From NCBI GenBank assembly GCA_937883885.1, contig CAKZXL010000515.1, forward strand, positions 1-59,699: DNA of 59,699 nt, written 5' to 3'. The notes under the pieces were generated by a model that saw nothing but the letters and a program-made list of their open reading frames with translations, was not told the DNA's origin and did not search any database. The stretch comes from an uncultured Aquincola sp. GTDB lineage: Bacteria > Pseudomonadota > Gammaproteobacteria > Burkholderiales > Burkholderiaceae. Shown here in pieces: positions 4,998 through 24,202 of this stretch. Positions within the stretch are counted from its first letter, which is position 1. Each line of letters begins with the position of its first letter. A program made the translations under genes and the position numbers.

Positions 4998-5014
4998 ACT
5001 TAGGGGCGACTTAA
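4998..5014 (-). promoter_or_regulatory. PmrA-like direct-repeat box 1 (Omp85 gene)
   Basis: On the minus strand this reads TTAAGT-CGCCC-CTAAGT, two half-sites 11 bp apart, 22 bases before the start at 4975. Confidence 0.7.
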
Positions 5015-5095
5015 GCCTCGGGCGACCCGTGCCGCGGCCGGGAGCGCCATCGCCCATCAAGGGCGGCGGTGGGCCAGTGGTTTTGCCGCCACGCA

Positions 5096-5112
5096 TTAAG
5101 TCCCGGTTAAGC
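5096..5112 (+). promoter_or_regulatory. PmrA-like direct-repeat box 2 (PAP2-RR-HK operon)
   Basis: TTAAGT-CCCGG-TTAAGC, 70 bases before the PAP2 start at 5183. The two-component genes follow in the same operon, so the box would make that system autoregulated. Confidence 0.7.
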
Positions 5113-5182
5113 AACTGCCTCCGAGCATGAACGACTGCTGCGTGTCCCTGTTCGGAGCGCGGCGCCAACGTAGCCTGGGGCG

Positions 5183-5776
5183 ATGAGCAACCTTCACCTG
5201 TTCCAACTGATCAATGCGCCGCCGGGGCTGAGCCCCCAGCAACTGCTGCTCGCCACGCTGATGGCTAGATGGCTCATCGTGCTGGCGCCTGTCGCGATGG
5301 CCGTCGCGTGGGTTCGCGCTGACCAGGCCGCCCGCCTCGACTTGCTGCAGGTCCTGCTCGCCGCCGGCCTCGCTCTGGTGCTGGCGGAGGCGATCACTTT
5401 TGTCTGGCCGCAACCGCGGCCGTTTGCACTTCACGTGGGCACGCAGTACCTCGAACCAAGCCACCGCCCAGGGCTGCCCAGCGACCACGTCACGCTGTTC
5501 TGGAGCCTGGCCCTGGCCACCTTGCGCACCCGGAAGTACGCGCTTTGGGGGTTTCCCTTGCTGGCGGTCGGCCTGCTGGTCGGCTGGAGCCGCATCTACC
5601 TGGGCCTGCACTTCCCGCTGGACATCGCTGCAGCCTTGCCTGTGGCATGGGCGGGTACCATGCTCGCGAGTGCGCTGCGCAAGCCCTTGACGCCGACCTG
5701 CATGCGGCTGCTGATGCTGCACGATCGATGGGCCCTTCTGCTGCGAGGCCGGATTCGCGCCCATCGAAAGACCTGA
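5183..5776 (+). CDS. PAP2-family phosphatase, BcrC/YbjG-like
   Basis: This 197-residue membrane protein carries the three PAP2 acid-phosphatase motifs: WPQPRPF, PSDH (about residue 98) and SRIYLGLHFPLD. The PSDH variant, in place of PSGH, is typical of BcrC/YbjG undecaprenyl-pyrophosphate phosphatases. The likely role is therefore dephosphorylation of C55-PP or a related lipid on the periplasmic face. It is followed after 19 bases by a response regulator and its kinase, and box 2 lies upstream, so I infer one operon responding to envelope stress. Lipid A 1-phosphate is an alternative substrate. Confidence 0.85.
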   Translation: MSNLHLFQLINAPPGLSPQQLLLATLMARWLIVLAPVAMAVAWVRADQAARLDLLQVLLAAGLALVLAEAITFVWPQPRPFALHVGTQYLEPSHRPGLPSDHVTLFWSLALATLRTRKYALWGFPLLAVGLLVGWSRIYLGLHFPLDIAAALPVAWAGTMLASALRKPLTPTCMRLLMLHDRWALLLRGRIRAHRKT

Positions 5777-5795
5777 ACCCTGCGAGCCCGGCCCC

Positions 5796-6455
5796 ATGCG
5801 AATCCTGTTGATCGAAGACGACGCCATGATCGGCAAGGCCGTACGCAGCGGCCTGGCCGATGCCGGCTTTGCCGTGGACTGGGTCACCGACGGCAGGGCG
5901 GCCGAGCTGGCCTTGGCCAACGACGTCTACGATCTGGCGGTGCTGGACCTCGGCTTGCCCAAGAAGGACGGCATGGCGATCCTGGCCTGGATGCGCAGCA
6001 TGGGCAACGCGATGCCGGTGCTGATTGCCTCGGCGCGAGATGCGGTGCGCGATCGCATCGCCGGCCTGGAGGCAGGCGCTGATGACTACGTCCTCAAACC
6101 GTTTGACCTCGATGAACTGGTGGCCCGGGTACGTGCGCTGCTCAGGCGTAACGCGGGGAGTGGGTCTCCCCTGCTCAAGTTCGGATCACTGATGCTGGAC
6201 CCGCTGCGCAAGCTTGTGACTCAGGGCGATGTCACGGTGGACTTGTCCGCCAAGGAGTTCGCCGTACTCGAAGCGCTGATGCGACGCCCGGGTGCGGTGC
6301 TGTCACGCGCCCAGTTGGAGGAGTCGGTTTACGGCTGGGGCGATGAGGTCGGCAGCAATGCCATCGAGGTGCACCTGCACCACTTGCGCAAGAAATTGGG
6401 CGCAGCCGTGATCAAGAACGTGCGGGGCATGGGCTACCGCGTCACGGAGGGTTGA
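5796..6455 (+). CDS. OmpR-family response regulator (PmrA/QseB-like)
   Basis: This 219-residue regulator has a receiver domain with acidic pocket D8/D9, phospho-acceptor D51 and K101, followed by a winged-helix DNA-binding domain (about residues 125-218) ending in VRGMGYRV. The pattern is that of PmrA/BasR and QseB. It sits between the PAP2 phosphatase and the histidine kinase, whose GTG start directly follows its stop. The second regulator at 20529-21188 has nearly the same architecture. Its likely targets are the TTAAGT-N5-CTAAGT boxes across 5-24 kb, one of them upstream of this operon. That link is inference. Confidence 0.92.
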   Translation: MRILLIEDDAMIGKAVRSGLADAGFAVDWVTDGRAAELALANDVYDLAVLDLGLPKKDGMAILAWMRSMGNAMPVLIASARDAVRDRIAGLEAGADDYVLKPFDLDELVARVRALLRRNAGSGSPLLKFGSLMLDPLRKLVTQGDVTVDLSAKEFAVLEALMRRPGAVLSRAQLEESVYGWGDEVGSNAIEVHLHHLRKKLGAAVIKNVRGMGYRVTEG

Positions 6456-7808
6456 GTGCGCTCGCTCGAGCGCTATCTGCTGGGCTGGATCATGGGGGCG
6501 CTCGCACTGGGCGCGGTGGTCATCGTCATGGTGACCTACCTGATCACGCTCGACGAGATGAACGAGATCTTCGATGCCGGGCTGAAGAACGTGGCCGAAG
6601 CTCTGGGAAACCACAATCATCCCGAGAGTGACCTGCGCGAGCCGGCTGTGTCGGTCATGCCGCAGCGTACCGATGTGGCAGATCCCGCGGAGATCGTGAC
6701 CATCACATGGACGCTGACGGGCCAGCCGGTCTTTTCGTCGGATCCTCGTGTGGCGATACCGTTCAGCAACCGCGAGGCCTTGCAACAGGTGCGCGTGGCC
6801 GAGGAGGACTGGATCGTCTACACCGACGTCACGGTCCACGGTGTGGCGCAGGCCGCGCAGCGGGTATTCGCGCGCCACGAGACAGCCGTTGAGGCCGCAT
6901 CGAAGATCGTTCTTCCGATGGGTGCGCTCGTGTTGTTTGTTGCGGCCCTCATGGTGGTGGCCCTGCGAAGGGGGCTGAAGCCGCTGGACGCAGCCGCGCA
7001 GGATGTTGCGTCCCGAACGGCATCGTCCTTGGCGCCGATACCCACGGACGAAGTTCCGCGCGAGATCGTCCCGCTTGTCGCATCGATCAACGGCATGATA
7101 GAGCGACTGGCGCTGGCTTTGTCCAACCAGCGGCGCTTTCTGGCCGATGCAGCCCACGAGCTCAGAACCCCAGTGACGGCATTGCGCCTGCAGCTTCAAT
7201 TGCTCAAACGTGCGAAAGACGAAGCCGGCCGCGCCGAAGCAGTCGAGGATCTGCAGGGGGGCATCGACCGGTCGCAGCGCCTGGTCGAGCAATTGCTGCA
7301 CGTAGCGCGCTTCGAGCCTGACGGCGAGCCGATGCAGCGCGGACGCGTTGATCTCGCGGCACTGGCACGCAAGGTGGTGGGTTCGATGAGCGCGAAGGCC
7401 GACCACTGCGGGCTCGACCTCGGCGCCGCCGGCGATGCGCCCGTGCTTGTCGACGGCGATGCCGGTCAACTCACCGTGCTGCTGAACAACCTGGTTGAGA
7501 ACGCGCTGCGGTACACGCCAGCGGGCGGCGTCGTCGATGTGGTGGCCGCCGAGTCGGAGGGACGCCCGACGGTGCGTGTCGTCGACACCGGCCCGGGCAT
7601 CCCGGAGACAGAGCGTGAGCGGGTGTTCGGCCGCTTCTACCGTGGGCCACAGGCGAGTGAGCTGGCCTCGGCACCCGGCGGCACTGGCCTGGGGCTGGCC
7701 ATCGTGAAGGCGATCGCCAACCGGCACGGCGCCACGGTCAGCCTCCACCGGGCACCATCGGGGCAAGGCCTGGAGGTGCGGGTCGTGTTTGCGCCGCCGC
7801 CGCCCTGA
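6456..7808 (+). CDS. Sensor histidine kinase (PmrB/QseC-like)
   Basis: This 450-residue kinase has membrane segments at about 10-31 and 150-170 enclosing a periplasmic region of roughly 115 residues, as in QseC-type kinases. A HisKA motif ADAAHELRTP places the phospho-accepting His at 234. The ATPase domain shows NLVENALRY (N box), DTGPGIP (G1) and GGTGLGLAIV (G2). The GTG start at 6456 abuts the regulator stop and GGAGG lies just upstream, so the pair is translationally coupled. The periplasmic region has several acidic residues, but the stimulus cannot be read from the sequence. Confidence 0.92.
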   Translation: MRSLERYLLGWIMGALALGAVVIVMVTYLITLDEMNEIFDAGLKNVAEALGNHNHPESDLREPAVSVMPQRTDVADPAEIVTITWTLTGQPVFSSDPRVAIPFSNREALQQVRVAEEDWIVYTDVTVHGVAQAAQRVFARHETAVEAASKIVLPMGALVLFVAALMVVALRRGLKPLDAAAQDVASRTASSLAPIPTDEVPREIVPLVASINGMIERLALALSNQRRFLADAAHELRTPVTALRLQLQLLKRAKDEAGRAEAVEDLQGGIDRSQRLVEQLLHVARFEPDGEPMQRGRVDLAALARKVVGSMSAKADHCGLDLGAAGDAPVLVDGDAGQLTVLLNNLVENALRYTPAGGVVDVVAAESEGRPTVRVVDTGPGIPETERERVFGRFYRGPQASELASAPGGTGLGLAIVKAIANRHGATVSLHRAPSGQGLEVRVVFAPPPP

Positions 7809-7860
7809 CCGAGCGCTGCGCCGGCCTCGCCCAGCACGAAGTGCGCGCGACGCCGCAGCC

Positions 7861-7877
7861 ATAAGCGCAGCTTAAGT
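7861..7877 (+). promoter_or_regulatory. PmrA-like direct-repeat box 3
   Basis: ATAAGC-GCAGC-TTAAGT, 53 bases before the start at 7931. The first half-site is the less conserved one. Confidence 0.6.
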
Positions 7878-7930
7878 GACGGGCTGCCACGATCGCAAGC
7901 TGTACACCGGCGGCGCCGCAGATCGGGTGG

Positions 7931-8188
7931 ATGCACATGGACTCGTTCGAACCCTACTTTGCCGACGACACGCAAGGCGTCCACTTTGGCGTCTGGGTCG
8001 ATGGTCAACTCGTCCTGGCCCATGTCGGCCGGCGCGTCCTGGCCGAGCGTTTCGGTGTGTCAGCCGACGGCCACGGCTGGGTCGCCGTGTATCTCGCCCA
8101 CCAGCAAGTGATCGACTCGGTCGTCACCGCCGAGGTGAGAGCCAACGGGCCTGAGACCGTCGTTCTTCGATTGCAGGATCTCCCTTGA
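7931..8188 (+). CDS. Small conserved-looking protein, DUF1488-like
   Basis: This is an 85-residue cytoplasmic protein without signal peptide or membrane segment. The pattern VHFGVWVDGQLVLAHVGRRVLAERFG loosely resembles small DUF1488 proteins, but I am not certain. Starts at 7931 and 7937 are both possible; GGGTGG precedes 7931. It lies behind box 3, immediately after the first two-component pair, so co-regulation with the envelope genes is inferred. No function is known to me. Confidence 0.55.
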   Translation: MHMDSFEPYFADDTQGVHFGVWVDGQLVLAHVGRRVLAERFGVSADGHGWVAVYLAHQQVIDSVVTAEVRANGPETVVLRLQDLP

Positions 8189-8225
8189 CGGTGGGTGCCA
8201 AGTCCGCCCTGCAGGTCTCGCGACC

Positions 8226-8645: not shown

Positions 8646-8675
8646 AGGTCGAAGCGGTTCCCCAGCGCGGCATGC

Positions 8676-8692
8676 CTAAGTCACGTCTAAGT
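8676..8692 (+). promoter_or_regulatory. PmrA-like direct-repeat box 4 (PepSY gene)
   Basis: CTAAGT-CACGT-CTAAGT is a perfect direct repeat of 6 bp with an 11-bp period, 68 bases before the PepSY start. Confidence 0.75.
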
Positions 8693-8760
8693 GTCGAAGG
8701 CCACAGTGGACTCGTCGACAGGCAATTTCGCCTGGTAGGCAATCCAGCAAGGAGCTCGAA

Positions 8761-9117
8761 ATGAAACGAACCCTCATGATTCCCGCACTCATCCTGGCCG
8801 CAGGTGTGGCCACTGCAGGCGGGCTGGCGTATGCCAAGCAGTCCGGTACAGCGGAGAACGATGCCGTCAGCGATCTGGCCAAGGCCAAGATCACCTTGGT
8901 GCAGGCCGTGAGCGCTGCCGAGGCCCAAGCCGGAGGCAAGGCCACCAAGGCAGAGCTCGATGGCGAGCGGGGTACGGTCGTGTTCGATGTCGAAGTCGTC
9001 ACGCCCGACAACAAGGTCTTCGACGTCAAGGTCGATGCTGCCGATGGCAAGGTGCTGTCCAGCAAGCTCGATCAGGCCGATCGTGGAGAGAAGGACGAGG
9101 AAAAGGACGAGGACTGA
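8761..9117 (+). CDS. PepSY-domain periplasmic protein
   Basis: This 118-residue protein has a signal peptide ending near residue 25 (GGLAYAKQ) and one PepSY domain: ITLVQAVSAAEAQ, then VVFDVEVVTPDNKVFDVKVD, then DGKVLSSK. The tail is highly charged (Glu/Asp/Lys). PepSY proteins often lie next to two-component systems in proteobacteria; a role in protease or sensor inhibition has been proposed but not shown. Box 4 is upstream and a strong hairpin follows the stop. A decayed partial copy lies at 13950-14116. Confidence 0.88.
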   Translation: MKRTLMIPALILAAGVATAGGLAYAKQSGTAENDAVSDLAKAKITLVQAVSAAEAQAGGKATKAELDGERGTVVFDVEVVTPDNKVFDVKVDAADGKVLSSKLDQADRGEKDEEKDED

Positions 9118-10683: not shown

Positions 10684-10700
10684 ATAAGTATCCCTTAAGT
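10684..10700 (+). promoter_or_regulatory. PmrA-like direct-repeat box 5 (glycosyltransferase operon)
   Basis: ATAAGT-ATCCC-TTAAGT, 49 bases before the ATG at 10750. It lies outside the IS4 element, so the insertion left it intact. Confidence 0.7.
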
Positions 10701-10749
10701 CACGGAGCCGCAAGATCGCTCGCATTGCCCAGCTGCCTTGTTTGCTTCC

Positions 10750-11877
10750 ATGAATTTCCCTGAGCCTAACCAGGCATCAAACTGTCCGTTGTGTGGGCAC
10801 ACACCAGTTGGGATGACCGCAGGAGCGCAGCGACCAAGCTTGAGTGTCGTGGTACCCGTCTTCAACGAAGCCGTGGTGCTGCCGCATCTGCATGAACGGC
10901 TGTTCAACGTACTTCGATCACTCGAAGAGCCGGTGGAGGTGCTGTATGTCGATGACGGCAGCAGCGATGCCACGCCGGCCGTGCTGTACGCGCTGCGCAA
11001 TGCCCACCCGGAAGTCGGTGTCATCCGCTTGTCACGCAACTTCGGGAAAGAGCTTGCCCTCAGTGCCGGCCTGCGCGCCAGTACCGGCGACTCGATTGTT
11101 GTGCTCGATGCCGATCTGCAGGACCCGCCGGAACTCATCCCCCAAATGCTCGCGTCGTTTCGCAGCGGCTATGACGTCGTGAACATGCGCCGCCGCAGTC
11201 GGGCAGGCGAGAGTTGGCTCAAGAAGCTGACGGCGCACCTCTTCTACCGGTTGCTCAACCGCCTGAGCGACGTGCCCATCCCCGCTGATGTGGGGGACTT
11301 TCGATTGTTGAGTCGGCGCGCGGTGGACGCTATCAACGCCATGCCAGAACGCAATCGCTACATGAAGGGGCTGTTTGCCTGGGTTGGTTACCGTCAGACG
11401 ACCCTGGACTACGACCGTGCACCGCGGGCTGCCGGTGTGGCCCGCCAGCATTACGGCAAGCTGCTGGGGCTGGCGGTTGAGGGCATCACCTCCTTCTCAG
11501 TCGCACCACTGCGCGTGGCAATGGTGACGGGTTGCGCAGCCGGCGCCATGGCGCTTGCGTTGACGATCTTCTATGCGGCCAAGGCCTTGATGTTTGGTGA
11601 TCCTGTTGGCGGCTTTCCGACGCTGATTGTCGCCATCCTCACCCTTGGAGGAATGAACCTGGTCGGCATGGGCGTCCTCGGCGAATACCTCGGGCGCCTG
11701 TTCATGGAGACCAAACGCAGGCCACTGGTGCTGATCGACGCCTTTGAACCACCGCAGGCGCGCAACGGACCTGACGAACGCACGGACCCTGTGCCCGCCC
11801 ACCAAAGCGGCGAACTGGAGGCCGTTGCTTGCGGCGGCCGGCTTGCAGTCGTCCACGCGCTGTCTCGCAGCGCATGA
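10750..11877 (+). CDS. Polyprenyl-phosphate glycosyltransferase, ArnC/GtrB-like (GT2)
   Basis: This 375-residue GT-A enzyme has LSVVVPVFNE, the DDG of nucleotide-sugar binding (D68/D69) and DADLQDPP (D120/D122). Two C-terminal membrane helices (about residues 240-320) are as in ArnC, GtrB and DPM synthases. It should move a sugar from a nucleotide donor onto undecaprenyl phosphate. Its stop overlaps the start of the ArnT-like gene (ATGA), so the two are coupled. No good Shine-Dalgarno marks 10750; TTG 10738 or ATG 10813 are alternatives. The sugar is unknown, since no arnA or arnB gene is nearby. Confidence 0.88.
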   Translation: MNFPEPNQASNCPLCGHTPVGMTAGAQRPSLSVVVPVFNEAVVLPHLHERLFNVLRSLEEPVEVLYVDDGSSDATPAVLYALRNAHPEVGVIRLSRNFGKELALSAGLRASTGDSIVVLDADLQDPPELIPQMLASFRSGYDVVNMRRRSRAGESWLKKLTAHLFYRLLNRLSDVPIPADVGDFRLLSRRAVDAINAMPERNRYMKGLFAWVGYRQTTLDYDRAPRAAGVARQHYGKLLGLAVEGITSFSVAPLRVAMVTGCAAGAMALALTIFYAAKALMFGDPVGGFPTLIVAILTLGGMNLVGMGVLGEYLGRLFMETKRRPLVLIDAFEPPQARNGPDERTDPVPAHQSGELEAVACGGRLAVVHALSRSA

Positions 11878-13343
11878 GCTCCGCTTCGATCACCGGGCCG
11901 CGCGCAGGCCGCACGCTGGTGTATTCCATCGCGGTGCTTGCCTTGCTGCGCCTGCTGTCCCTGTCCTGGTATCCGCTGATGGACACCACCGAGGCACGGT
12001 ACGCGGACGTGGCCCGGCGCATGTTGGCGCAGGGTGACTGGATCACGCCCTGGTTCACCGACGGTGTACCGTTCTGGGGCAAGCCGCCGTTGAGCTTCTG
12101 GGCCACCCGACTGGGATTCATGCTGTTCGGCGTCGGTGAGTTGGGTGCCCGGCTGCCGCACTACCTTCTGGGTGCTGGCGTGGCAATTCTGGTGTGGTGG
12201 CATGCGCGACGGTTGTCGCATCGCGCCGCCTGGCATGCCGTGGCGCTGCTGTCGGGATCGACACTGTTCCTGGTGTCCAGCGGCGCCGTGATGACCGACA
12301 TGGCGCTGACGCTGGGAAATACCTTGGTCATGGTCGGCTTCTGGCGTTCGCTGCACTGCGACGCGCTCGACAAGACGTCGACACACCGTGCGGGCTGGAT
12401 GATTGCGCTGGGCGCGGTCATCGGCCTGCTTGCCAAAGGTCCGGTGTCACTGGTGCTGTGGGGCCTGCCGGTACTGGCGTGGGTCTGCTGGAGTGGCAGT
12501 CTCCGCCTCGCTTGGGAACGCATTGCCTGGCTGCGCGGCGCGCTGCTGGTGCTGGCCCTGACGCTGCCGTGGTACGGACTGGCGGAGTCGCGCACGCCCG
12601 GTTTTCTACACTACTTTCTGGTCGGTGAGCACTGGCAGCGATTCGTAACGCCGGGTTGGGCAGGCGATCTGTATGGCAGCGCGCACGATTTTCCACGCGG
12701 CAGCATCTGGCTGTTTGCAATCGGCGCTTCACTGCCCTGGAGCTTTCTGCTGCCATTGGCAGCGTGGGTCGGGCTCGCTCGGCGCGGCTCCCTCGCTCAA
12801 GACGCGCCGCCGCAGCCCGCAGGTCAGCAAGCCTATCTGCTCATGTGGGCCTTGACGCCGTGCATCTTCTTCACGGCTGCTGGCAATATTCTCTGGACCT
12901 ATGTTCTGCCTGGACTGCCCGCGCTGGCGCTGCTGGTCGGTGGCTGGACTGCCTCACGCCGCCGCGCTCGGCTGACCGAAGGCGTCTTGACGACGGGGAC
13001 CGCAGCTATGGCCATCGGCCTGACCGCGTTCGTGGTCAGCGGCAGCGTCAATGACCGCTTCACGAACAGGTCTGCCAAGGACGTGTTGCTGGCCTATCAA
13101 GCCCAGGCCGAGAAAGGCGAGCCGCTGTACTTCTTGGGCAAGGTCCCATTCTCTGCGTCGTTTTACTCTGCCGGGCAAGCTCGCGCACTGGCCAGTCTCT
13201 CCGATCTCGCATCCACAACCAACGACAAGGGTGCGTGGGTTGTCGTCGACTTGCGCACATGGGCCACGCTGCCCCCAGCGCAGCGTGAGGGCCTGAGCGT
13301 CGTGACCGAGAAGGGACAGCGCATGCTGCTTCGCTGGCGTTGA
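11874..13343 (+). CDS. ArnT-like lipid-linked glycosyltransferase (PMT_2)
   Basis: This 489-residue multi-pass membrane protein has the PMT/ArnT opening MDTTEARYADVARRML, then FTDGVPFWGKPPLSFW. About ten hydrophobic segments and a short C-terminal soluble part follow. ArnT transfers L-Ara4N from undecaprenyl phosphate to lipid A on the periplasmic side. With the ArnC/GtrB-like gene overlapping its start and box 5 upstream, transfer of a sugar to lipid A is the best inference, but the sugar is not known. It converges with the GtrA gene 29 bases away. Confidence 0.85.
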   Translation: MSSASITGPRAGRTLVYSIAVLALLRLLSLSWYPLMDTTEARYADVARRMLAQGDWITPWFTDGVPFWGKPPLSFWATRLGFMLFGVGELGARLPHYLLGAGVAILVWWHARRLSHRAAWHAVALLSGSTLFLVSSGAVMTDMALTLGNTLVMVGFWRSLHCDALDKTSTHRAGWMIALGAVIGLLAKGPVSLVLWGLPVLAWVCWSGSLRLAWERIAWLRGALLVLALTLPWYGLAESRTPGFLHYFLVGEHWQRFVTPGWAGDLYGSAHDFPRGSIWLFAIGASLPWSFLLPLAAWVGLARRGSLAQDAPPQPAGQQAYLLMWALTPCIFFTAAGNILWTYVLPGLPALALLVGGWTASRRRARLTEGVLTTGTAAMAIGLTAFVVSGSVNDRFTNRSAKDVLLAYQAQAEKGEPLYFLGKVPFSASFYSAGQARALASLSDLASTTNDKGAWVVVDLRTWATLPPAQREGLSVVTEKGQRMLLRWR

Positions 13344-15949: not shown

Positions 15950-16351
15950 CTATCGCTGAACGAGCGCCACGAACCACACCAGGACTGCGCCGGCGATGCT
16001 TAGCATCACCGCTGCGCTGCCCATGTCCTTGGCGCGCTTGATCAGTGGGTGTGATTCGAGCGAGACCGTGTCGGCGAGCGCCTCGATCGCAGAGTTGAGC
16101 AACTCGACCACGAAGACGGCCACGATCGAGAGCGTCATCGCCAGCGCATGCCATGCGCCCGGTGCGATCCACCACGCCAGCGCGATGAGTGGCAGGCCGA
16201 CAGCCAGTTCCTGGCGGAAGGCGGCCTCGTGGCGAAACGCAGCCAGCAGCCCGTCGCGGGAGTAGCGCGCTGCATGCCAGACGCGACTGAGTCCGGGCCG
16301 GCTCTTGTAGGGGGTGGTCAGGCTCGGTTCGGGACAGTCAGGCAGGCTCAT
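15950..16351 (-). CDS. dgkA: Diacylglycerol kinase
   Basis: This 133-residue protein has three membrane helices and the DgkA signature ELLNSAIEALADTVSLE followed by KRAKDMGSAAV. It phosphorylates diacylglycerol to phosphatidic acid at the inner membrane. Diacylglycerol is the by-product when EptA takes phosphoethanolamine from phosphatidylethanolamine, so its place downstream of eptA makes metabolic sense. The start at 16351 overlaps the PAP2 stop (ATGA), which decides it against the much longer open frame upstream. The N-terminal 25 residues are an extension relative to E. coli DgkA. Confidence 0.9.
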   Translation of the reverse strand: MSLPDCPEPSLTTPYKSRPGLSRVWHAARYSRDGLLAAFRHEAAFRQELAVGLPLIALAWWIAPGAWHALAMTLSIVAVFVVELLNSAIEALADTVSLESHPLIKRAKDMGSAAVMLSIAGAVLVWFVALVQR

Positions 16352-17070
16352 GACGGCAGTGCGGCGCGTGGGCGAAGTAAGTGGAACGACAGAGTGGAAA
16401 CGACCCAGCACAGCCAGGCTGTCCACAGGGGATGGCTGGGGTAGTGGGCACCCCGCGCAACCTGGACCGCGCCCAGTACCAGACCGGCCACCATCGTGAC
16501 CGTCAGCCAACGCCTTGCCGCCGCCGGAGCAGCATCGCGCAGAACGAACCATGCGGCGAGGAATGCGAACGCCGTGGACGCGTGGCCCGAAGGGAAGCAT
16601 CCGCCTGGGCCACCGTCGGCGACGCCGTAGACCCAGTGGGGTACGTACTGCCCGACGCTGCCGCCGAATTCGGCCAAGGACCATGGGCAACTCGTGGCGC
16701 TGAGGCGCTTGATCAGCGGGATCAAGGCCGCGCTGGCCAAGGTGGTGCCCAGCATCCACAGCCGTTGAGATTTCGATAGCGAACGAAGCGGCCCCCAGGG
16801 CCGCCAGTAGCCGACCACGAGCGCAGCGAGCAGTGCCCATGCGAGGTAGCGGATGCCCCCGTGCAACAGCCCTGCAGTCAGCCAGTGGTGTCGCCAGGGA
16901 AAGCCGTCGGGCCCACCCAGCCATCGTGCGACCGTGATGTCCATGCCCGTGGCGTCCCAGGCTGCCAGCGCGGCGAAGCCAGCCGCCGCGACGGAGATGT
17001 CGGTGATGGCCATGCGTCGCCAAGCGGTGACGCTCGGGCCGCGCGCGGCGACGGCGGTCAACGGCGGCAT
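16348..17070 (-). CDS. PAP2-family phosphatase in the eptA operon
   Basis: This 240-residue membrane protein carries PAP2 motifs: a degenerate first motif around IPLIKRLSATSCPW, a clear FPSGHAS, and ARGAHYPSHPLW. Overall it resembles LpxT/PgpB-type lipid phosphatases or phosphotransferases. The start at 17070 overlaps the eptA end by 13 bases; 17013 is an alternative. Its stop overlaps dgkA. Lipid A phosphate or a phospholipid phosphate are likely substrates given the neighbours, but this is inference. Confidence 0.83.
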   Translation of the reverse strand: MPPLTAVAARGPSVTAWRRMAITDISVAAAGFAALAAWDATGMDITVARWLGGPDGFPWRHHWLTAGLLHGGIRYLAWALLAALVVGYWRPWGPLRSLSKSQRLWMLGTTLASAALIPLIKRLSATSCPWSLAEFGGSVGQYVPHWVYGVADGGPGGCFPSGHASTAFAFLAAWFVLRDAAPAAARRWLTVTMVAGLVLGAVQVARGAHYPSHPLWTAWLCWVVSTLSFHLLRPRAALPS

Positions 17071-18698
17071 GCCCGGGTGATGTCTAGTGTGGGCTCGTAC
17101 TCGCGCGACTGCACCTGCAGCAAGCCCATCGTGGTGTGGAACAGATTGTCGTGGGTCCGCGCCTGTGCCGCCTCCCGCTTCAGGCAGGCCGTGTCCAGGC
17201 CAAAGCTGGCCGTGTAGCCCGGTGACAGCCACCAGGTCATCGGCACCTTCGTCTGTTCATCAGGGGCGATGGCGAAGGGCACGCCGTGCAGGTAAAGCCC
17301 CTTCTCGCCCAACGACTCGCCGTGGTCCGACACGTACACGAGGGCGGTGTCGTAGCGCTTGGACTGCGACTCCAGGAAATCGATCGTTTTGACCAGCACA
17401 TGGTCGGTGTAGAGCAGGGCGTTGTCATAGGCGTTGACGATCTGCTCACGCGGGCACTGCTTCAAGTCGCCGGTATCGCAGGTGGGGGTGTAGCGACGAA
17501 ACGCCTGCGGGTAGCGCTTGAAGTACGCCGGCCCGTGGTTGCCGAGCATGTGGAGCACGACCACCAGATTGCCCTTGGCGTCGCGCGCGACCGTGTCCAG
17601 CCCCTCGAGCAGCACCTCGTCCAGGCAGCGGCCACCGTCGCACCACTCGGACAGCTTGGCGTTGTCAGATTGCACTGCTGCAAGCCCCTCGCAGACTCCT
17701 TTGCAGCCAGACTGGTTGTCGCGCCACAGCACCTGGAAGCCGGCGCGGTGAAGCACATGCAGCAGCGACTCGCTGGTGCGGATACGGCGTTCGTCGTAGT
17801 CGCGCCGGCCTATCGGCGCGAACATGCAGGGCAGCGAGGTCTCGGTGTTGGTGCCGCACGCGGTGACGTCGGGGAAATTGATCACGTCGCGTTGCGCCAG
17901 TTGGGGCGTTGTCTGACGCGCATTGCCGTTCAGGCCCCAGTTGGCCGCCCGCGCGGTTTCGCCGATCGCCAGCACCAGCAGGGCCGGCTTGGTCCGGGCG
18001 GTCCATGAAGCGTCGAGCCGGGCATCGAGGCCGATCGGTGATCGCGCTGCCTGGGCCTCGTGTGTGCTGTCGACCGACACGCGCACAGCGGAGTAGATGA
18101 AGTTGGCCGGTGTGATGAGGTAACGGACCTCTTTCTGGTTGCGCATCTGCGCAGAAAAATCCTGGAACACCAGCAGCAACGCCCCAACGAGCAAAGCGGA
18201 CGACCCCGCGATCGTTGCTAGCCGCCATGCCATTGCGCGGCCCCAGGGCTGGCGATCGAGCTGCACACGCCAGAGCACGAGCAAGGGCAGGCCGGCAAAC
18301 AGCAGCAGGTGCGGCAGCATGCCCCAGCCGAACAGCTCGCCAGCCTCGGCGGGATCGGTCTTCAGCACGTTGCGCAGCATCGTCGGATCGAGATAGATCC
18401 CGAAGCGCTGCATGTAGTACGTGGCGAAGGCCGTGGCGACGATCAGCAGTGCGAGTAGCGGCTTGGCCAGCGGCCGCGCCACGACCAGCGACAGGAGCAA
18501 CACATGCACGGCGGCCAGCGCCACCAGCATGGCCAGGGTGAACGTCCAGCTGGCCGGAAGCCAGGGGTCTCGACCGGCCAGTACCGCCGAGAGAAACGGG
18601 GCGTTGGCTCCGATCGCGAAGAACAGGCCGGCGAAAACCGTCAGGCGCGTGCTCGTCAACGCCGGTCGCCGGGCGAACCACCGGCTCACGGTCAGCAT
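17058..18698 (-). CDS. eptA: Lipid A phosphoethanolamine transferase, EptA family
   Basis: This 546-residue protein has five N-terminal membrane helices (to about residue 180) and a periplasmic sulfatase-fold domain. Catalytic features are visible: GETAR (E247), CGTNTETS with the nucleophile Thr285, HMLGNHGPAYF and SDHGESLGE. Paired Cys residues (C281/C291 and others) suggest disulfides. It transfers phosphoethanolamine from phosphatidylethanolamine to lipid A, lowering its negative charge. It heads an overlapping operon with PAP2, dgkA, dedA and MFS genes. A PmrA-like box lies about 245 bases upstream, consistent with PmrA control of eptA elsewhere. Confidence 0.93.
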   Translation of the reverse strand: MLTVSRWFARRPALTSTRLTVFAGLFFAIGANAPFLSAVLAGRDPWLPASWTFTLAMLVALAAVHVLLLSLVVARPLAKPLLALLIVATAFATYYMQRFGIYLDPTMLRNVLKTDPAEAGELFGWGMLPHLLLFAGLPLLVLWRVQLDRQPWGRAMAWRLATIAGSSALLVGALLLVFQDFSAQMRNQKEVRYLITPANFIYSAVRVSVDSTHEAQAARSPIGLDARLDASWTARTKPALLVLAIGETARAANWGLNGNARQTTPQLAQRDVINFPDVTACGTNTETSLPCMFAPIGRRDYDERRIRTSESLLHVLHRAGFQVLWRDNQSGCKGVCEGLAAVQSDNAKLSEWCDGGRCLDEVLLEGLDTVARDAKGNLVVVLHMLGNHGPAYFKRYPQAFRRYTPTCDTGDLKQCPREQIVNAYDNALLYTDHVLVKTIDFLESQSKRYDTALVYVSDHGESLGEKGLYLHGVPFAIAPDEQTKVPMTWWLSPGYTASFGLDTACLKREAAQARTHDNLFHTTMGLLQVQSREYEPTLDITRACRR

Positions 18699-19144
18699 TG
18701 CTGGCGTGACTGACTGGGCTGAATCGATGCCGTGCGGTGATGGTCCGCTGTTCGACCAGCCAGCCTGCGCACGGGGGAGAAGATCGATGTGGGGGCCAGA
18801 CTGCCGTCAATAGCAGGCGCCAGCAGCCTGTGGCACATGGCAAGGGAAACACATCGCATCGGGCACTCCTGTCGGCGGTCCGGGCTCTTGGCCACGGTGG
18901 CGCCGCGTCATGCACGGCAACAACCCGAGAGTGCGGGGTGAGGACTTAAGTACGACTTAAACGCGGTGCAGAGGTTGCACCACTCGATCTGACCCGCCTT
19001 GTGGCCACGACTGGCTTGGTGCTCGACCGACGGAGGACTCGCATGGGCAACGACCGCTGGCGAGCCCAGCCGGTTGCTGAGCTGGTCGGCAATCGCTGCA
19101 AGGCCCGCCCGTGAAGCTACAAACCTGGGCGGCTTGCGCCCGGG
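18699..19144. other. Intergenic region upstream of eptA
   Basis: About 446 bases hold box 6 (18944-18960) and no gene I can support. The overlapping short frames on both strands have no family resemblance. The 245 bases between the box and the eptA start imply a long leader or an upstream mis-set start. Confidence 0.5.
18944..18960 (-). promoter_or_regulatory. PmrA-like direct-repeat box 6 (eptA operon)
   Basis: On the minus strand this reads TTAAGT-CGTAC-TTAAGT, a perfect repeat with an 11-bp period, the best match to a PmrA box in the window. It is unusually far (245 bases) from the eptA start. Confidence 0.75.
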
Positions 19145-20120: not shown

Positions 20121-20137
20121 TTAAGTCTTGTCTAAGT
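20121..20137 (+). promoter_or_regulatory. PmrA-like direct-repeat box 7 (second two-component operon)
   Basis: TTAAGT-CTTGT-CTAAGT, 82 bases before the start at 20220; the regulator and kinase genes follow. Confidence 0.75.
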
Positions 20138-20219
20138 GGCGGGCCCTAGATTGACCTGCAGCGAGATCAGGCGACCGCCTCCGGCCGTCGTCTCGTTGAA
20201 GCACCCAAGGAGTTGCCGC

Positions 20220-20504
20220 ATGAACCACACCCATGTCCGTTGGAGCGCGAACGTGCGGCCCACCATCGATGTCACGCCAGGCGCAGGCTGGCGACGTGGC
20301 CTGCGCAGGGTAGGCCTTGCCATGACGCTTGTGGTGGTGCTGGCGGTCGTGCTGCCATTGCTGTGGCTGTTCGGTGCGCTGACGCTGCTGGCGACGCTGG
20401 GTGGTGTCGCCGTTATGCTGCTGTGGGGCATGGTGAGACAGGCCTTCGCACCCCGGGGTCGGTCCGGACAAAGCCTCCGCACCCGCGCATCCGACGAACT
20501 CTGA
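20220..20504 (+). CDS. Small inner-membrane protein upstream of the second regulator
   Basis: This 94-residue protein has one long hydrophobic stretch (about residues 32-66) that could form one or two helices, and basic ends. AAGGAG lies 8 bases before the ATG at 20220, which decides the start over an upstream in-frame ATG. It is the first gene after box 7 and lies 24 bases before the response regulator. I do not recognise a family. Position suggests a small regulator or accessory of the sensor, which is speculation. Confidence 0.65.
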   Translation: MNHTHVRWSANVRPTIDVTPGAGWRRGLRRVGLAMTLVVVLAVVLPLLWLFGALTLLATLGGVAVMLLWGMVRQAFAPRGRSGQSLRTRASDEL

Positions 20505-20528: not shown

Positions 20529-21188
20529 ATGCGTATCCTGCTGGTAGAAGACGACACCATGATCGGTGAGTCGGTGCTGGATCTGTTGCGCGCTGAGCAC
20601 TATGCGGTGGACTGGGTGAAGGACGGCGAGATGGCCGAGACCGCGCTGCGCACGCAGACCTACGACTTGGTACTGCTGGACCTCGGCTTGCCGCGGCGGG
20701 ATGGCCTGTCGGTCCTTCGAGCCATGCGCTCGCGCAAGGAACGCATACCGGTGTTGATCGCCACCGCGCGCGATTCGGTGCAGCAGCGCATCGAAGGGCT
20801 CGACGCGGGTGCCGACGACTACGTGCTCAAGCCCTACGACCTCGACGAGCTTTTGGCCCGCATCCGGGCCTTGTTGCGCCGCGCCTCCGGTCGCGCGGAG
20901 CCGGTGTACGAGCACAAGGGCGTGACGATCAACCCGGCCAGCCGCGAAGTGATGGTTGGCGAGCAGGCTGTTGTGCTGTCGGCGCGTGAGTGGGCGGTGC
21001 TCGAGCCCCTGCTGGCTCGCCCCGGACTGGTGTTGTCGCGCGCCCAGCTCGAGGAGAAGCTCTACGGCTGGAAAGACGAAATCAGCAGCAACGCAATCGA
21101 GGTCTACATCCATGGCTTGCGCAAGAAGCTCGGCGTGGACCTGATCCAGAACGTGCGTGGCGTCGGCTACATGGTTCCCAGGGTCTGA
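20529..21188 (+). CDS. OmpR-family response regulator (PmrA/QseB-like)
   Basis: This 219-residue regulator is a paralogue of the one at 5796-6455. It has pocket D8/D9, phospho-acceptor D51, a conserved YVLKPYD and a C-terminal winged helix ending in VRGVGYMV. The recognition-helix region (SNAIEVYIHGLRKKLG) is very close to that of the first regulator (SNAIEVHLHHLRKKLG), so both may bind the same boxes. GAGGAG precedes the ATG. The kinase starts 3 bases after its stop. Box 7 upstream implies autoregulation. Confidence 0.92.
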   Translation: MRILLVEDDTMIGESVLDLLRAEHYAVDWVKDGEMAETALRTQTYDLVLLDLGLPRRDGLSVLRAMRSRKERIPVLIATARDSVQQRIEGLDAGADDYVLKPYDLDELLARIRALLRRASGRAEPVYEHKGVTINPASREVMVGEQAVVLSAREWAVLEPLLARPGLVLSRAQLEEKLYGWKDEISSNAIEVYIHGLRKKLGVDLIQNVRGVGYMVPRV

Positions 21189-21190
21189 GC

Positions 21191-22525
21191 ATGGCCGTGC
21201 AGCCCTCCCATTCCCTGCGCACCCGGCTGCTCTGGCTGCTGCTTGCGGCCATCGTACTGACGGCGGTGGTCCAGGCCTTGATCGCCTACCGCGCAGCACG
21301 CGCCGAGGCGGATGAGATCTTCGACTACCACATGCAGCAGATGGCGCTGTCTTTGCGATCGGGGCTGCCGTCGAATGCGGTAGCGGGACCTGGCGAGGAT
21401 TCGCAGGACGAAGAAGACCTGAACTTCATGGTCCAGGTGTGGACCGCCGATGGCCTGCGCGTGTTTCAGTCGGCGCCCCGCGCTGCGTTGCCACAGCGTA
21501 CCGTGCTGGGTTTTTCCGACGTCAAGACCCACGGCGGCACTTACCGCGTGTTCTCGATGCAGTCGCGTTCACAAGTCATCCAGGTGGCCCAGGACATGGC
21601 GGCGCGGCGCGAGATGGCTGGTACCCTGGCCTTGCGCACGATGGCGCCCATCGCCGTGATGGCGCCCCTGCTGATGTTGGTGGTGTGGTGGGTAGTGAGC
21701 CTGTCGTTGGCTCCGGTGTCACGGGTGCGGCGCCAGGTCGCCGATCGACAGGCCGACGACCTGAGTGCTGTCAGCGACCTCGACCTGCCGGACGAGATCC
21801 GGCCTCTGGTCCAGGAGCTCAATCTGCTGTTCGGCCGGGTGCGCGAGGCCTTCGACGCCCAGAAGAACTTCGTCGCCGATGCGGCGCATGAGCTGCGCTC
21901 GCCGTTGGCCGCTCTGAAGCTGCAGGTCCAGGGGCTGCAGCGCGCCACCGACGATACGGCCAGAGACCTGGCGGTGAGTCGGCTGGCCGCGGGCATCGAC
22001 CGCGCGACGCGCCTGGTAGAACAACTTCTGGTGCTGGCCCGGCATCAAGCGAGCGCCGCCACGGGCCTCAAGCCGGAGCCAGTGTCTCTGGTGGAGTTGG
22101 CGCGTCTGGCCGTGGCCGATGCGGTGCCCGCAGCGCAAATGCGCCAGACCGATGTCGGCTTGACGCAGGCCGATGAGGGACTGATCGCAGGCCAGGCGGA
22201 GGCACTGCGCATCCTGATGCGAAACCTGCTGGACAACGCTGTGAAGTACACCCCGGCGGGTGGCAAGGTGGACCTGGAGATCGTGCGCGAGGCGGGCGCG
22301 ATTCGCCTGTCGGTGGAAGACAGCGGACCTGGCATCGCCGACGTCGACCGGCAGCGGGTGCTCGACCGCTTTTACCGCGTGGCCGGCACAGAAACCACGG
22401 GCAGCGGACTGGGCCTGGCGATCGTCCGGTCGATTGCCGAGATGCACGGCGCGCGCTTGCGACTCGACCGATCCGAGCGGCTGGGCGGCCTGCGGGTCGA
22501 CGTGACTTTCCCTCTGGCAGGCTGA
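21191..22525 (+). CDS. Sensor histidine kinase (PmrB/QseC-like)
   Basis: This 444-residue kinase has membrane segments at about 12-33 and 148-172, a periplasmic loop of about 110 residues containing an acidic EDSQDEED stretch, and a HisKA motif ADAAHELRSP with His233. The ATPase motifs are NLLDNAVKYTP, DSGPGI and GSGLGLAIV. The acidic periplasmic stretch could bind cations, as proposed for PmrB ExxE motifs; that is inference. The ATG at 21191 lies directly after the regulator. It is a paralogue of the kinase at 6456-7808 with a diverged sensor region. Confidence 0.92.
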   Translation: MAVQPSHSLRTRLLWLLLAAIVLTAVVQALIAYRAARAEADEIFDYHMQQMALSLRSGLPSNAVAGPGEDSQDEEDLNFMVQVWTADGLRVFQSAPRAALPQRTVLGFSDVKTHGGTYRVFSMQSRSQVIQVAQDMAARREMAGTLALRTMAPIAVMAPLLMLVVWWVVSLSLAPVSRVRRQVADRQADDLSAVSDLDLPDEIRPLVQELNLLFGRVREAFDAQKNFVADAAHELRSPLAALKLQVQGLQRATDDTARDLAVSRLAAGIDRATRLVEQLLVLARHQASAATGLKPEPVSLVELARLAVADAVPAAQMRQTDVGLTQADEGLIAGQAEALRILMRNLLDNAVKYTPAGGKVDLEIVREAGAIRLSVEDSGPGIADVDRQRVLDRFYRVAGTETTGSGLGLAIVRSIAEMHGARLRLDRSERLGGLRVDVTFPLAG

Positions 22526-22615
22526 TCGCACGCGGACGCGCCAACTGGCCGTCACGCCGCAAGTCGTGCCCGACGACGCGTTGCTCGATGCTGTGTGCAC
22601 TCAACCCACAGCGGG

Positions 22616-22632
22616 TTAAGTGCTTGGTAAGT
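22616..22632 (+). promoter_or_regulatory. PmrA-like direct-repeat box 8 (DUF347 gene)
   Basis: TTAAGT-GCTTG-GTAAGT, 57 bases before the start at 22690. Confidence 0.7.
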
Positions 22633-22689
22633 CATGGCCCGATAGCGTAGGGGCTGGCTCCACCACTCAGCATCCAAGAGGGCATTCCC

Positions 22690-23481
22690 ATGAACAAGAT
22701 CGAACCCGCGTCTGCCGAGCGCCTGCTCAACAAGGTGCCGGAGGTCACGCTGTACTTCTGGGTCATCAAGATCATGGCCACCACCGTCGGCGAGACGGCG
22801 GCGGACTTCCTGAACACCAACCTGAATCTCGGCCTGACCAACACCTCGATCCTGATGGCAGCGCTGCTCGTCGCAGCCCTCGTCGGCCAGTTCCGCAAGG
22901 ACCGCTACGTGCCCTGGATCTACTGGGTCGCGGTGGTGCTGATCAGCGTGGTGGGCACCTTGATCACCGACAACATCACCGATCACTTCGGCGTGCCGCT
23001 GCAGGTGACGACGACGATTTTCGCGATCGCTCTGGCGACCACTTTCGCCGCCTGGTTTGCCGTCGAGAAGACCTTGTCGATCCACTCGATCTTCACCATG
23101 CGCCGTGAGTCGTTCTACTGGGCCGCCATCCTGTTCACGTTCGCATTGGGCACGGCGGCAGGTGACCTGGTGGCCGAGACGCTGAAGCTCGGCTACCTGT
23201 ACTCGGCCATGGCATTCGGCGCCGGCATCGCGCTCGTGACCCTGGCGCACCTCGTGTTCAAGCTGAATGCCGTGCTCGCGTTCTGGCTCGCCTACATCTT
23301 GACCCGTCCGTTCGGTGCATCGTTCGGCGACCTGCTGTCGCAGCCGGCGAGCAACGGGGGCCTGGGCCTGGGGACGGTCGGCACCAGCGCGCTGTTCCTG
23401 ACGGTGATCCTCGGCTTGGTCGTCTACATGACCAGGGCCGAAAGGCGCAGGTCCGTACTGGATGCGGCGCGGCTGGTCTGA
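22690..23481 (+). CDS. DUF347/COG4705-family membrane protein
   Basis: This 263-residue protein has about eight hydrophobic segments. It carries repeats of the pattern (T/F)xxGxxxxD: TTVGETAADF, FALGTAAGDL and RPFGASFGDL, which define the DUF347 repeat. The family is uncharacterised; the repeated small and acidic residues within helices suggest a transporter. It stands alone behind box 8, directly after the second two-component operon, so I infer membership of the same regulon. Confidence 0.82.
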   Translation: MNKIEPASAERLLNKVPEVTLYFWVIKIMATTVGETAADFLNTNLNLGLTNTSILMAALLVAALVGQFRKDRYVPWIYWVAVVLISVVGTLITDNITDHFGVPLQVTTTIFAIALATTFAAWFAVEKTLSIHSIFTMRRESFYWAAILFTFALGTAAGDLVAETLKLGYLYSAMAFGAGIALVTLAHLVFKLNAVLAFWLAYILTRPFGASFGDLLSQPASNGGLGLGTVGTSALFLTVILGLVVYMTRAERRRSVLDAARLV

Positions 23482-23610
23482 GGTTGCAGCGTCGTCGAAC
23501 AGGGAAGTAAATCGCGCACGCCATGCCAAGACTGATCGATCGCCGCCGGATCTCTTCGCTGCCAGAATCTTTGGCCGACTCATCGGTCCCAGCTCAGACC
23601 GAGTTTGGCC

Positions 23611-23627
23611 TTAAGTCCTGTCTAACT
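23611..23627 (+). promoter_or_regulatory. PmrA-like direct-repeat box 9 (DUF302 gene)
   Basis: TTAAGT-CCTGT-CTAACT, 53 bases before the start at 23681. The second half-site has one change. Confidence 0.65.
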
Positions 23628-23680
23628 GTCGGCGCCCACCATCTTGGAACCAGGAGCGACACCCCCGCCCTGAGGAGCAA

Positions 23681-24133
23681 ATGATGCGTCAACGCAAAGA
23701 GTCCGCCTCCTTCGAGGCGCTGAAGGCCGAGGCCTTCATTCGCGGCGAGTCGACCCTTTCCGTGGTGTGCGACCGACCCTTCGACGAGGTCGCCCTGCAG
23801 TTGGAGGGCAGCATCGTCGCCAATGATCTCGGGATCCTGCAGGTGCACGATTTCCGGCGCTTGCTCCAGGCCAAGGGCATGTCACTGGAGCACAACTGTC
23901 GCGTCTACGAGGTCTGTAATCCGCGCCTGACCGCCCAACTCATCGACATCGACCCCGGGCTCGCCCACGTCCTTCCGTGCCGGATCTCGATGCACGACCA
24001 GGGTGGCGTCACCACTGTCACGACGCCGATGCCGTCCGCACTGATGACGGAGTTCTCGCACGCGGCCAACGTGGCGCGGCTGGCGCGCACCTTCGAGGCC
24101 GGCTTGCAGCGGGTGCTCAGAGGCTTGCTCTGA
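23681..24133 (+). CDS. DUF302-family protein
   Basis: This 150-residue protein shows the DUF302 pattern: FDEVALQLEGSI, GMSLEHNCRVYEVCNPRLT, LAHVLPCRISMHDQGG and a late valine/threonine-rich strand. It has no signal peptide or membrane segment, so it is probably cytoplasmic. GAGGAG lies 4 bases before the first of two ATGs. The family is found in many bacteria and has no firmly assigned role. It stands behind box 9, between the DUF347 and Do-protease genes. Confidence 0.8.
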   Translation: MMRQRKESASFEALKAEAFIRGESTLSVVCDRPFDEVALQLEGSIVANDLGILQVHDFRRLLQAKGMSLEHNCRVYEVCNPRLTAQLIDIDPGLAHVLPCRISMHDQGGVTTVTTPMPSALMTEFSHAANVARLARTFEAGLQRVLRGLL

Positions 24134-24185
24134 AGCGGGTTGATCGCTCATCGGCAGCGGTGTTGGCGTCACGAGAGCCGACCGA

Positions 24186-24202
24186 TTAAGAACTGTCTAA
24201 GT
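24186..24202 (+). promoter_or_regulatory. PmrA-like direct-repeat box 10 (Do protease)
   Basis: TTAAGA-ACTGT-CTAAGT, 54 bases before the start at 24257. Confidence 0.65.

What the first reader, a model, noticed from the sequence alone, without database searches (positions are those of the whole stretch)
4998..24202. Ten PmrA-like direct-repeat boxes define one clustered envelope regulon
The motif (T/C)TAAGT-N5-(T/C)TAAGT, always with an 11-bp period, was read at 4998, 5096, 7861, 8676, 10684, 18944, 20121, 22616, 23611 and 24186. Each is oriented toward the next gene, and nine lie 22-82 bases before a start codon. PmrA/BasR boxes have the form CTTAAN-N5-CTTAAN and control eptA and arn genes, which matches the genes here. 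Ten copies within 20 kb, covering nearly every operon, is unusual and extends the regulon to PepSY, DUF347, DUF302, DUF1488-like, Omp85 and Do-protease genes.
Basis: partly seen in the sequence, partly recalled or inferred. Interest (0 to 1): 0.8.

Follow-up and report, generated by a model that had tools for sequence, protein, structure and literature searches.

The report
Two-class operator set of paired sensors
Ten on-switch DNA sites in this stretch look like real promoter parts of a known class of envelope-stress regulators, and they appear to split into two sets, one for each of the two sensor systems encoded beside them.

Summary
All ten sites are at the stated positions with an 11-bp period. 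Nine fit the motif with at most one mismatch; shuffles give 0.016. The other 40 kb of the window has none at two or fewer.

They look like working promoters. In 10 of 10, a -10-like NANNNT starts 9 or 10 bases after the box (background 5.5%). Among 59 boxes of relatives it lies at +9 in 42 and +10 in 14, against a mean of 2.5 at other spacings.

The regulators belong to the PmrA/QseB clade.

"One regulon" should be revised. Boxes fall into class A (half-site 2 TTAA, spacing 10: PAP2-RR1-HK1, DUF1488, GT2-PMT, EptA) and class B (CTAA, spacing 9: PepSY, RR2-HK2, DUF302, DegP), with two intermediates. The classes recur in relatives; nine of nine assessable DegP-RR2-HK2 operons carry class B boxes. 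Class correlates with recognition-helix residue 196. Boxes of DUF347, PepSY, DegP and PAP2-RR1 recur in relatives; those of GT2-PMT and the outer-membrane gene do not. Binding, signal and partition are inferred.

The parts
4998..5014 (-). box TTAAGT-cgccc-CTAAGT before the outer-membrane (Omp85-like) gene; NANNNT 10 bases on (4987-4982)
   Evidence: intermediate class (C, 10); 0 of 8 orthologues boxed
5096..5112 (+). class A box TTAAGT-cccgg-TTAAGC, promoter of PAP2-RR1-HK1; NANNNT at 5123-5128
   Evidence: box in 3 of 3 close orthologues of PAP2, 1 of 8 distant
5183..5776 (+). PAP2 phosphatase (undecaprenyl-diphosphatase-like, below that model's cut-off)
5796..6455 (+). RR1, OmpR-family response regulator, PmrA/QseB clade; recognition helix SNAIEVHLHH
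6456..7808 (+). HK1, sensor histidine kinase, ExxE (EMNE, residues 34-37) after the first hydrophobic stretch
7861..7877 (+). class A box ATAAGC-gcagc-TTAAGT before DUF1488-like/DUF5329 genes; NANNNT at 7888-7893
   Evidence: orthologues not tested
8676..8692 (+). class B box CTAAGT-cacgt-CTAAGT before PepSY gene; NANNNT at 8702-8707
   Evidence: box in 7 of 9 PepSY relatives
8761..9117 (+). small PepSY protein
10684..10700 (+). class A box ATAAGT-atccc-TTAAGT before GT2-PMT pair; NANNNT at 10711-10716
   Evidence: 0 of 20 orthologues boxed
10738..13343 (+). GT2 glycosyltransferase and PMT-family glycosyltransferase (distant ArnC/ArnT relatives)
17058..18698 (-). EptA-type phosphoethanolamine transferase
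15950..17023 (-). prokaryotic diacylglycerol kinase domain protein, downstream of EptA
18944..18960 (-). class A box TTAAGT-cgtac-TTAAGT, 245 bases before EptA; NANNNT at 18933-18928
   Evidence: box also in L039, L163/L205 (one locus) and L191; 3 of 29 EptA relatives boxed in all
20121..20137 (+). class B box TTAAGT-cttgt-CTAAGT, promoter of small membrane protein-RR2-HK2; NANNNT at 20147-20152
   Evidence: 17 of 58 RR2 orthologues boxed directly, 9 more have the box before a DegP gene that precedes RR2
20220..20504 (+). 94-residue predicted membrane protein, first gene of the RR2 operon
   Evidence: own reading of hydrophobicity
20529..21188 (+). RR2, OmpR-family response regulator, PmrA/QseB clade; recognition helix SNAIEVYIHG
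21191..22525 (+). HK2, QseC-like sensor kinase, ExxE (EADE, residues 39-42)
22616..22632 (+). box TTAAGT-gcttg-GTAAGT before DUF347 gene (intermediate class); NANNNT at 22643-22648
   Evidence: 26 of 47 close orthologues boxed, 1 of 25 distant
22690..23481 (+). DUF347 (COG4705, name recalled) eight-helix membrane protein
   Evidence: model (pLDDT 87.9)
23611..23627 (+). class B box TTAAGT-cctgt-CTAACT before DUF302 gene; NANNNT at 23637-23642
   Evidence: 2 of 3 close orthologues boxed, 0 of 5 distant
23681..24133 (+). DUF302 protein
24186..24202 (+). class B box TTAAGA-actgt-CTAAGT before DegP gene; NANNNT at 24212-24217
   Evidence: 3 of 3 assessable orthologues, one from Cupriavidus metallidurans CH34, and 9 of 9 assessable DegP-RR2-HK2 loci
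24257..25774 (+). Do-family (DegP) periplasmic protease

Best explanation
Each box is a dimer site for a phosphorylated OmpR-type regulator of the PmrA/QseB/BqsR kind. The two DNA-binding domains sit head to tail on half-sites 11 bp apart, over the place where a -35 element would lie, and help RNA polymerase use a weak -10 that starts 9-10 bp downstream. These are therefore activator sites. The window encodes two such regulators with their kinases, and each system's own operon carries a box (autoregulation). The ten promoters most likely form two overlapping sets. RR1 (His196) would drive lipid and glycan remodelling: PAP2, EptA-diacylglycerol kinase, GT2-PMT and DUF1488. RR2 (Gly196) would drive periplasmic quality control: PepSY, DegP and DUF302. 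DUF347 and the outer-membrane gene are intermediate. The input is probably metal or cationic envelope stress. Shown here: sites, geometry, conservation, RR clade and class correlation. Inferred: binding, activation, signal and assignment of each set to one regulator.
For: Site count far above shuffles. NANNNT at +9/+10 in 10 of 10, p about 1.6e-11 after allowing for 60 spacings. Same peak in relatives: 42 (+9) and 14 (+10) of 59 boxes, reversed-pattern control 5 and 6 of 80. E. coli eptA and pmrR boxes have it at +9. Boxes upstream of orthologues: DUF347 26/47, PepSY 7/9, DegP 3/3, PAP2 3/3, DUF302 2/3, with 0 reversed-pattern matches in these five groups; DegP-RR2-HK2 operons 9 of 9 assessable, reversed pattern 0 in 10 stretches. 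RR1, RR2, BasR and QseB lie in one clade at 100/94. N188, V192, H195 and R210, contacts in K. pneumoniae PmrA (PMC4660055, passages), are kept in both. Class split repeats in relatives with the window left out: half-site p=0.002, spacing p=0.003; half-site 2 against residue 196: H 10/10 T, G 18/20 C, and the 9 later DegP-RR2-HK2 loci 9/9 C, all with NANNNT at +9.
Against: No binding or expression data. The class split was noticed after the fact, related rows are not independent, and two of ten window boxes are intermediate. In front of RR operons the spacing difference alone is p=0.077. Residue 196 = Ala rows give T (8) or C (4) by clade, so no simple size rule holds. 41 of 58 RR2 orthologues show no box directly upstream and 21 of 47 close DUF347 orthologues none within 300 bases at this stringency (for 9 of the RR2 loci the box lies before an upstream DegP gene). 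Methylobacterium locus L060 has an in-clade regulator and no box. BqsR's reported layout at one promoter puts the most downstream pentamer on the -35 (PMC4682146, passage), unlike here.
Confidence: 0.77

Rival explanations
1. One shared regulon: both regulators bind all ten boxes interchangeably, and the class differences are noise.
For: All boxes share TAA cores and the 11-bp period; contact residues N188, H195 and R210 are shared; two boxes are intermediate.
Against: Half-site 2 base and spacing vary together in the window (T: 4 of 4 at +10; C: 4 of 5 at +9; p=0.048) and differ between gene sets in relatives (p=0.002 and 0.003); helix residues 193 and 196 are clade-specific; DegP-RR2-HK2 operons are all class B.
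Confidence: 0.27
2. Only one of the two systems acts through these boxes; the other binds elsewhere.
For: One regulator could serve both classes; many RR2-type loci in relatives show no box directly upstream.
Against: Both window TCS operons carry a box (5096, 20121), and boxes occur upstream of operons of both RR subclades in relatives.
Confidence: 0.13
3. Chance A+T-rich direct repeats in a G+C-rich window.
For: The exact pattern occurs in 109 of 399 genomes of the order, usually a few times, with the reversed control often as frequent.
Against: 0.016 expected against 9; fixed -10 distance; conservation upstream of orthologues.
Confidence: 0.01
4. The ten boxes are copies of one promoter spread by duplication, not independently kept sites.
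For: They are clustered in 19 kb.
Against: Outside box and -10, the aligned flanks show little shared sequence (29 sites).
Confidence: 0.03

Closest known systems
BqsR/CarR operator of Pseudomonas aeruginosa (PMC4682146, passages read)
   Same: TTAAG-N6-TTAAG, same 11-bp period; activator; all ten window boxes lie within two changes of it. Two PepSY genes lie next to bqsS (PMC12714742, passages), and a PepSY gene is boxed here.
   Different: Half-site 2 is mostly CTAAG in class B. Here the -35 slot lies over half-site 1, whereas the paper puts the most downstream pentamer of the promoter it dissected on the -35. Targets DUF347, DUF302 and DegP were not seen in the passages read.
PmrA/BasR box of Enterobacteria
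   Same: Direct repeat at 11-bp period, -35 over half-site 1 (PMC4660055, passages), NANNNT at +9 in E. coli eptA and pmrR; an EptA gene is boxed here.
   Different: RRs score below the PmrA equivalog cut-off; residue 196 is H or G instead of N; two systems instead of one; no arn operon found.
QseBC
   Same: RR1 and both kinases score best to QseB/QseC among NCBIfam models; RR1 helix SNAIEVHLHH is close to E. coli QseB SNAVEVHVHH.
   Different: All below the equivalog cut-offs.
DbfQRS PepSY-kinase-regulator modules (PMC12714742, passages read)
   Same: PepSY gene near a two-component system.
   Different: In the window the PepSY gene has its own box and stands apart from both TCS operons; interaction not tested.
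UzcRS of Caulobacter (PMC8963506, a review, passages read)
   Same: Metal-responsive two-component regulator acting mainly on envelope proteins.
   Different: Its motif has half-sites CATTAC and TTAA; it differs from the box here.

Membership tests
PmrA (BasR) response regulator | NCBIfam equivalog cut-off 330 bits | tested here: not met
   RR2 234.0, RR1 230.7 bits
PmrA (BasR) response regulator | base-contact residues N188, N196, R210 (PMC4660055) | tested here: not met
   N188 and R210 kept; 196 is H (RR1) or G (RR2)
PmrA-class operator | head-to-tail repeat at 11-bp period with -35 slot over half-site 1 | tested here: met
   E. coli control; -35 slot placed by assuming a 17-base spacer
QseB response regulator | NCBIfam equivalog cut-off 345 bits | tested here: not met
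   RR1 239.2, RR2 218.7 bits
BqsR regulon | TTAAG-N6-TTAAG within two changes (criterion used in PMC4682146) | tested here: met
   all ten boxes, read; two (5096, 18944) are exact
BqsR regulon | cognate BqsS senses Fe(II); ExxE motif in the periplasmic domain | tested here: inconclusive
   ExxE present in HK1 and HK2 just after the first hydrophobic stretch; metal binding not testable
BqsR regulon | regulator orthologous to BqsR | not tested
   no BqsR sequence was placed in the tree; CarR receiver 8gc6 scores 110 bits, close to the BasR receiver's 112-113
arn operon (PmrA target) | ArnC and ArnT above NCBIfam cut-off | tested here: not met
   165.6 of 529 and 132.7 of 567 bits
EptA-type phosphoethanolamine transferase | P_eth_NH2_trans domain model cut-off 500 | tested here: met
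   570.1 bits
EptA equivalog or MCR families | their own NCBIfam cut-offs | tested here: not met
   EptA equivalog 530.3 of 660; best MCR model (MCR-5) 584.9 of 1250; none of the MCR models listed reaches its cut-off

The most novel reading that the evidence does not exclude
Two paralogous two-component systems encoded in one accessory gene cluster have partitioned a common operator into two dialects. Class A has half-site 2 TTAA with the -10 at +10; class B has CTAA with the -10 at +9. The dialect is set largely by residue 196 of the recognition helix (H gives T; G gives C). The cluster would then be a self-contained envelope-defence programme whose insulation can be read from sequence.
Probability: 0.5. 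Interest if true: 0.65.

Novelty: new variant of a known kind. Interest (0 to 1): 0.53.

Why it matters
It gives a promoter rule (11-bp repeat plus fixed -10 distance) for finding targets of PmrA/QseB/BqsR-type systems in Burkholderiales and relatives. It ties proteins of unknown function (DUF347, DUF302, DUF1488) to an envelope-stress response. It also makes a general question testable: how two paralogous regulators in one cell, using nearly the same operator, are kept apart.

Tried and rejected

Rows dropped; hits with query start over 60, coverage under 50%, upstream under 150 bases, or duplicate upstream sequence; groups under 3 not printed (so L037's DegP, box present, is not in its 3 of 3); only boxes with -10 at 9 or 10 counted; PAP2 of L164 (33% identity, C, +9) left out of the A set - including it gives T 5, C 2; 5 of 34 RR2-clade rows and 3 of 9 in the third clade did not yield a helix by the search rule; 9 rows did not yield a helix, and some near-palindromic sites are counted on both strands (hence the count by locus). 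Structure alignment: 25 of 29 rows tried were used. Tree: the program warns of long branches meeting, BasR with QseB among them.
Full report
Observation. The motif search found YTAAGT-N5-YTAAGT at all ten coordinates. In 500 dinucleotide shuffles the expected number at <=1 mismatch is 0.016, maximum 1; nine are observed, and none lies outside 4.9-24.3 kb even at <=2. [CT]TAAG pairs 5-40 bases apart in the window occur only at period 11 (6 pairs). Each box points at a gene.

Gene content. Pfam and NCBIfam scans give: Omp85-like gene; PAP2; RR1; HK1; DUF1488-like (19.9 bits against a cut-off of 22); DUF5329; PepSY; a DDE transposase; GT2; PMT; a second PepSY-like ORF (23.3 against 24); MFS; diacylglycerol kinase; EptA; PAP2; a 94-residue predicted membrane protein; RR2; HK2; DUF347; DUF302; DegP. 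Further right are two heavy-metal P-type ATPases, two CzcA-type pumps, an integrase-like protein and a Tn3-type transposase. Genes were called by a simple script, so small genes may be missed. DUF347 relatives are found in 28 of 200 family genomes at E<=1e-40, and DUF302 at 60% identity or more in 1 of 200, so at least these genes are accessory.

Promoter geometry. Aligning the 10 window sites and 19 orthologous sites showed a second conserved element downstream. In 10 of 10 window sites a NANNNT hexamer starts 9 or 10 bases after the box; in two-register windows not touching these spacings it occurs in at most 2 of 10; background 5.5%, binomial p 2.7e-13, about 1.6e-11 after allowing for 60 spacings. 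In 59 non-redundant boxes (<=1 mismatch) from relatives' loci the counts are 42 at +9 and 14 at +10, other spacings mean 2.5, maximum 8. For the reversed pattern (80 sites at <=2) they are 5 and 6 against a mean of 3.6. With a 17-base spacer the -35 slot falls on half-site 1 and the bases after it. For K. pneumoniae pbgP the -35 is also placed at the half-1 site (PMC4660055, passages). As a named control, the E. coli K-12 boxes upstream of eptA and pmrR have NANNNT at +9 (pmrR also at +11). The arnB box (3 mismatches) has it at +9 too, but in A+T-rich DNA that also fits +3, +10 and +11, and the qseB site fits +3, +8, +9 and +10, so these two say little; that these genes are BasR or QseB targets is recalled. 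Exact boxes collected by pattern alone from the order (30 in L006-L035) show a weaker peak, 7 at +9 and 3 at +10 against a mean of 2.0, as expected if only some are functional.

Conservation. Orthologues with a box <=2 mismatches within 300 bases upstream: DUF347 at >=55% identity 26 of 47, lower 1 of 25; PepSY 7 of 9; DegP 3 of 3; PAP2 at >=55% 3 of 3, lower 1 of 8; DUF302 2 of 3 close, 0 of 5 distant; RR2 at >=55% 17 of 58, lower 1 of 9; RR1 directly 2 of 11, lower 0 of 13; EptA 2 of 7 close, 1 of 22 distant; GT2 0 of 20; outer-membrane gene 0 of 8; HK2 0 of 22 close. The reversed pattern gives 0-1 in every printed group except distant RR2 (3 of 9). Cupriavidus metallidurans CH34 has an exact box before a DegP gene. 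A Hydrogenophaga MAG carries DegP, PAP2, RR1-HK1, a diacylglycerol-kinase-like stretch, EptA and DUF347 in 10 kb with boxes at DegP, EptA and DUF347. In ten further loci a DegP gene directly precedes RR2-HK2. Stretches reaching upstream of DegP show a box in 9 of 9 assessable loci, half-site 2 CTAAG and NANNNT at +9 in all nine, reversed pattern 0. Thus GT2-PMT and the outer-membrane gene look recruited locally, while DUF347, PepSY, DegP, PAP2-RR1 and the RR2 operon form the recurring core.

Regulators. RR1 and RR2 sit in one clade with E. coli BasR and QseB (100/94) but in separate subclades, so they are not a recent duplication (91 rows; BasR is a long branch). Both miss the PmrA and QseB equivalog cut-offs. 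Of the PmrA contacts, N188, V192, H195 and R210 are identical in both, 187 is S for T, and 196 is H in RR1 and G in RR2. Both kinases have an ExxE motif just after the first hydrophobic stretch, a motif discussed for iron-sensing BqsS, BasS and PmrB (PMC12666569, passages). That paper found only the second Glu essential for Fe(II) binding in BqsS. The signal here is unknown.

Two classes. In the window, half-site 2 TTAA goes with spacing 10 (PAP2-RR1-HK1, DUF1488, GT2-PMT, EptA) and CTAA with spacing 9 (PepSY, RR2 operon, DUF302, DegP). The outer-membrane gene (C, 10) and DUF347 (G, 10) are intermediate (p=0.048). This was seen after the fact, so it was tested in relatives with the window left out. 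EptA plus close PAP2 boxes: T 5, C 1 and spacing 10 in 5 of 6. DegP, DUF302, PepSY and DUF347 boxes: T 6, C 33 (2 neither) and spacing 9 in 34 of 41 (p=0.002 and 0.003). Boxes in front of RR operons: RR1 clade T 4 of 5 (8 loci examined); RR2-like loci C 12 of 15 (53 loci); half-site p=0.03, spacing p=0.077. By the residue at position 196 of the nearby regulator (59 boxes): H 10 of 10 T; N 5 of 7 T; G 18 of 20 C; S 8 of 10 C; A 8 T and 4 C, split by clade. Spacing 10 occurs in 11 of 17 boxes with H or N and 4 of 42 with G, S or A. Loci with Y193 and H196 (L112, L117, L123) have T boxes, so position 196 rather than 193 follows the base. Counted by locus, H/N against G/S/A is 11:1 against 8:24 (p=9e-5). 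None of these p-values is corrected for relatedness. The DegP-RR2-HK2 boxes were read after this pattern was set down and are all C at +9.

Comparison with the known. The box form and layout are those of PmrA-class operators. The closest published operator sequence seen is BqsR's TTAAG-N6-TTAAG (PMC4682146, passages), with PepSY genes next to bqsS (PMC12714742, passages). What differs is the pair of systems, the two box dialects and the target set. Verdict: a conserved operator-promoter set of a known class; the dual-dialect reading is the new and testable part.

Noticed in passing
window 3270-4975 (-): The outer-membrane Omp85-like gene is split between two overlapping frames (3776-4975 and 3270-3866); the 8 relatives listed have one open frame of about 560 residues or more, so it is frameshifted here or carries a sequence error. 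Relatives suggest its start is after the GTG at 4975.
   Followed up: partly
window, about 9.21-10.58 kb: A DDE transposase element with inverted ends (cttaagttcgcagcattgg) lies between the PepSY gene and the GT2-PMT box; its ends hold a single half-site-like word but are not boxes.
   Followed up: partly
window 18692-18859 (-): A 55-codon ORF in the EptA leader overlaps the EptA start (ATGCTGA), which could couple translation.
   Followed up: partly
window 15950-17023 (-): The diacylglycerol kinase domain covers only residues 253-353; about 250 N-terminal residues match no Pfam family at the limit used.
   Followed up: no
   Followed up: no
   Followed up: partly
L131, L133, L136-L139, L144: Recurring neighbourhood of PepSY, PAP2 (not in L131), one or two DUF347 genes and usually a regulator, with divergent half-site 1 (such as CTATGG or CTCAGT), half-site 2 CTAAGT and -10 at +9.
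   Followed up: partly
window 26219-58626: Metal-resistance gene block (two CzcA-type pumps, two P-type ATPases) with IS1595- and Tn3-type transposases beside the box cluster.
   Followed up: no
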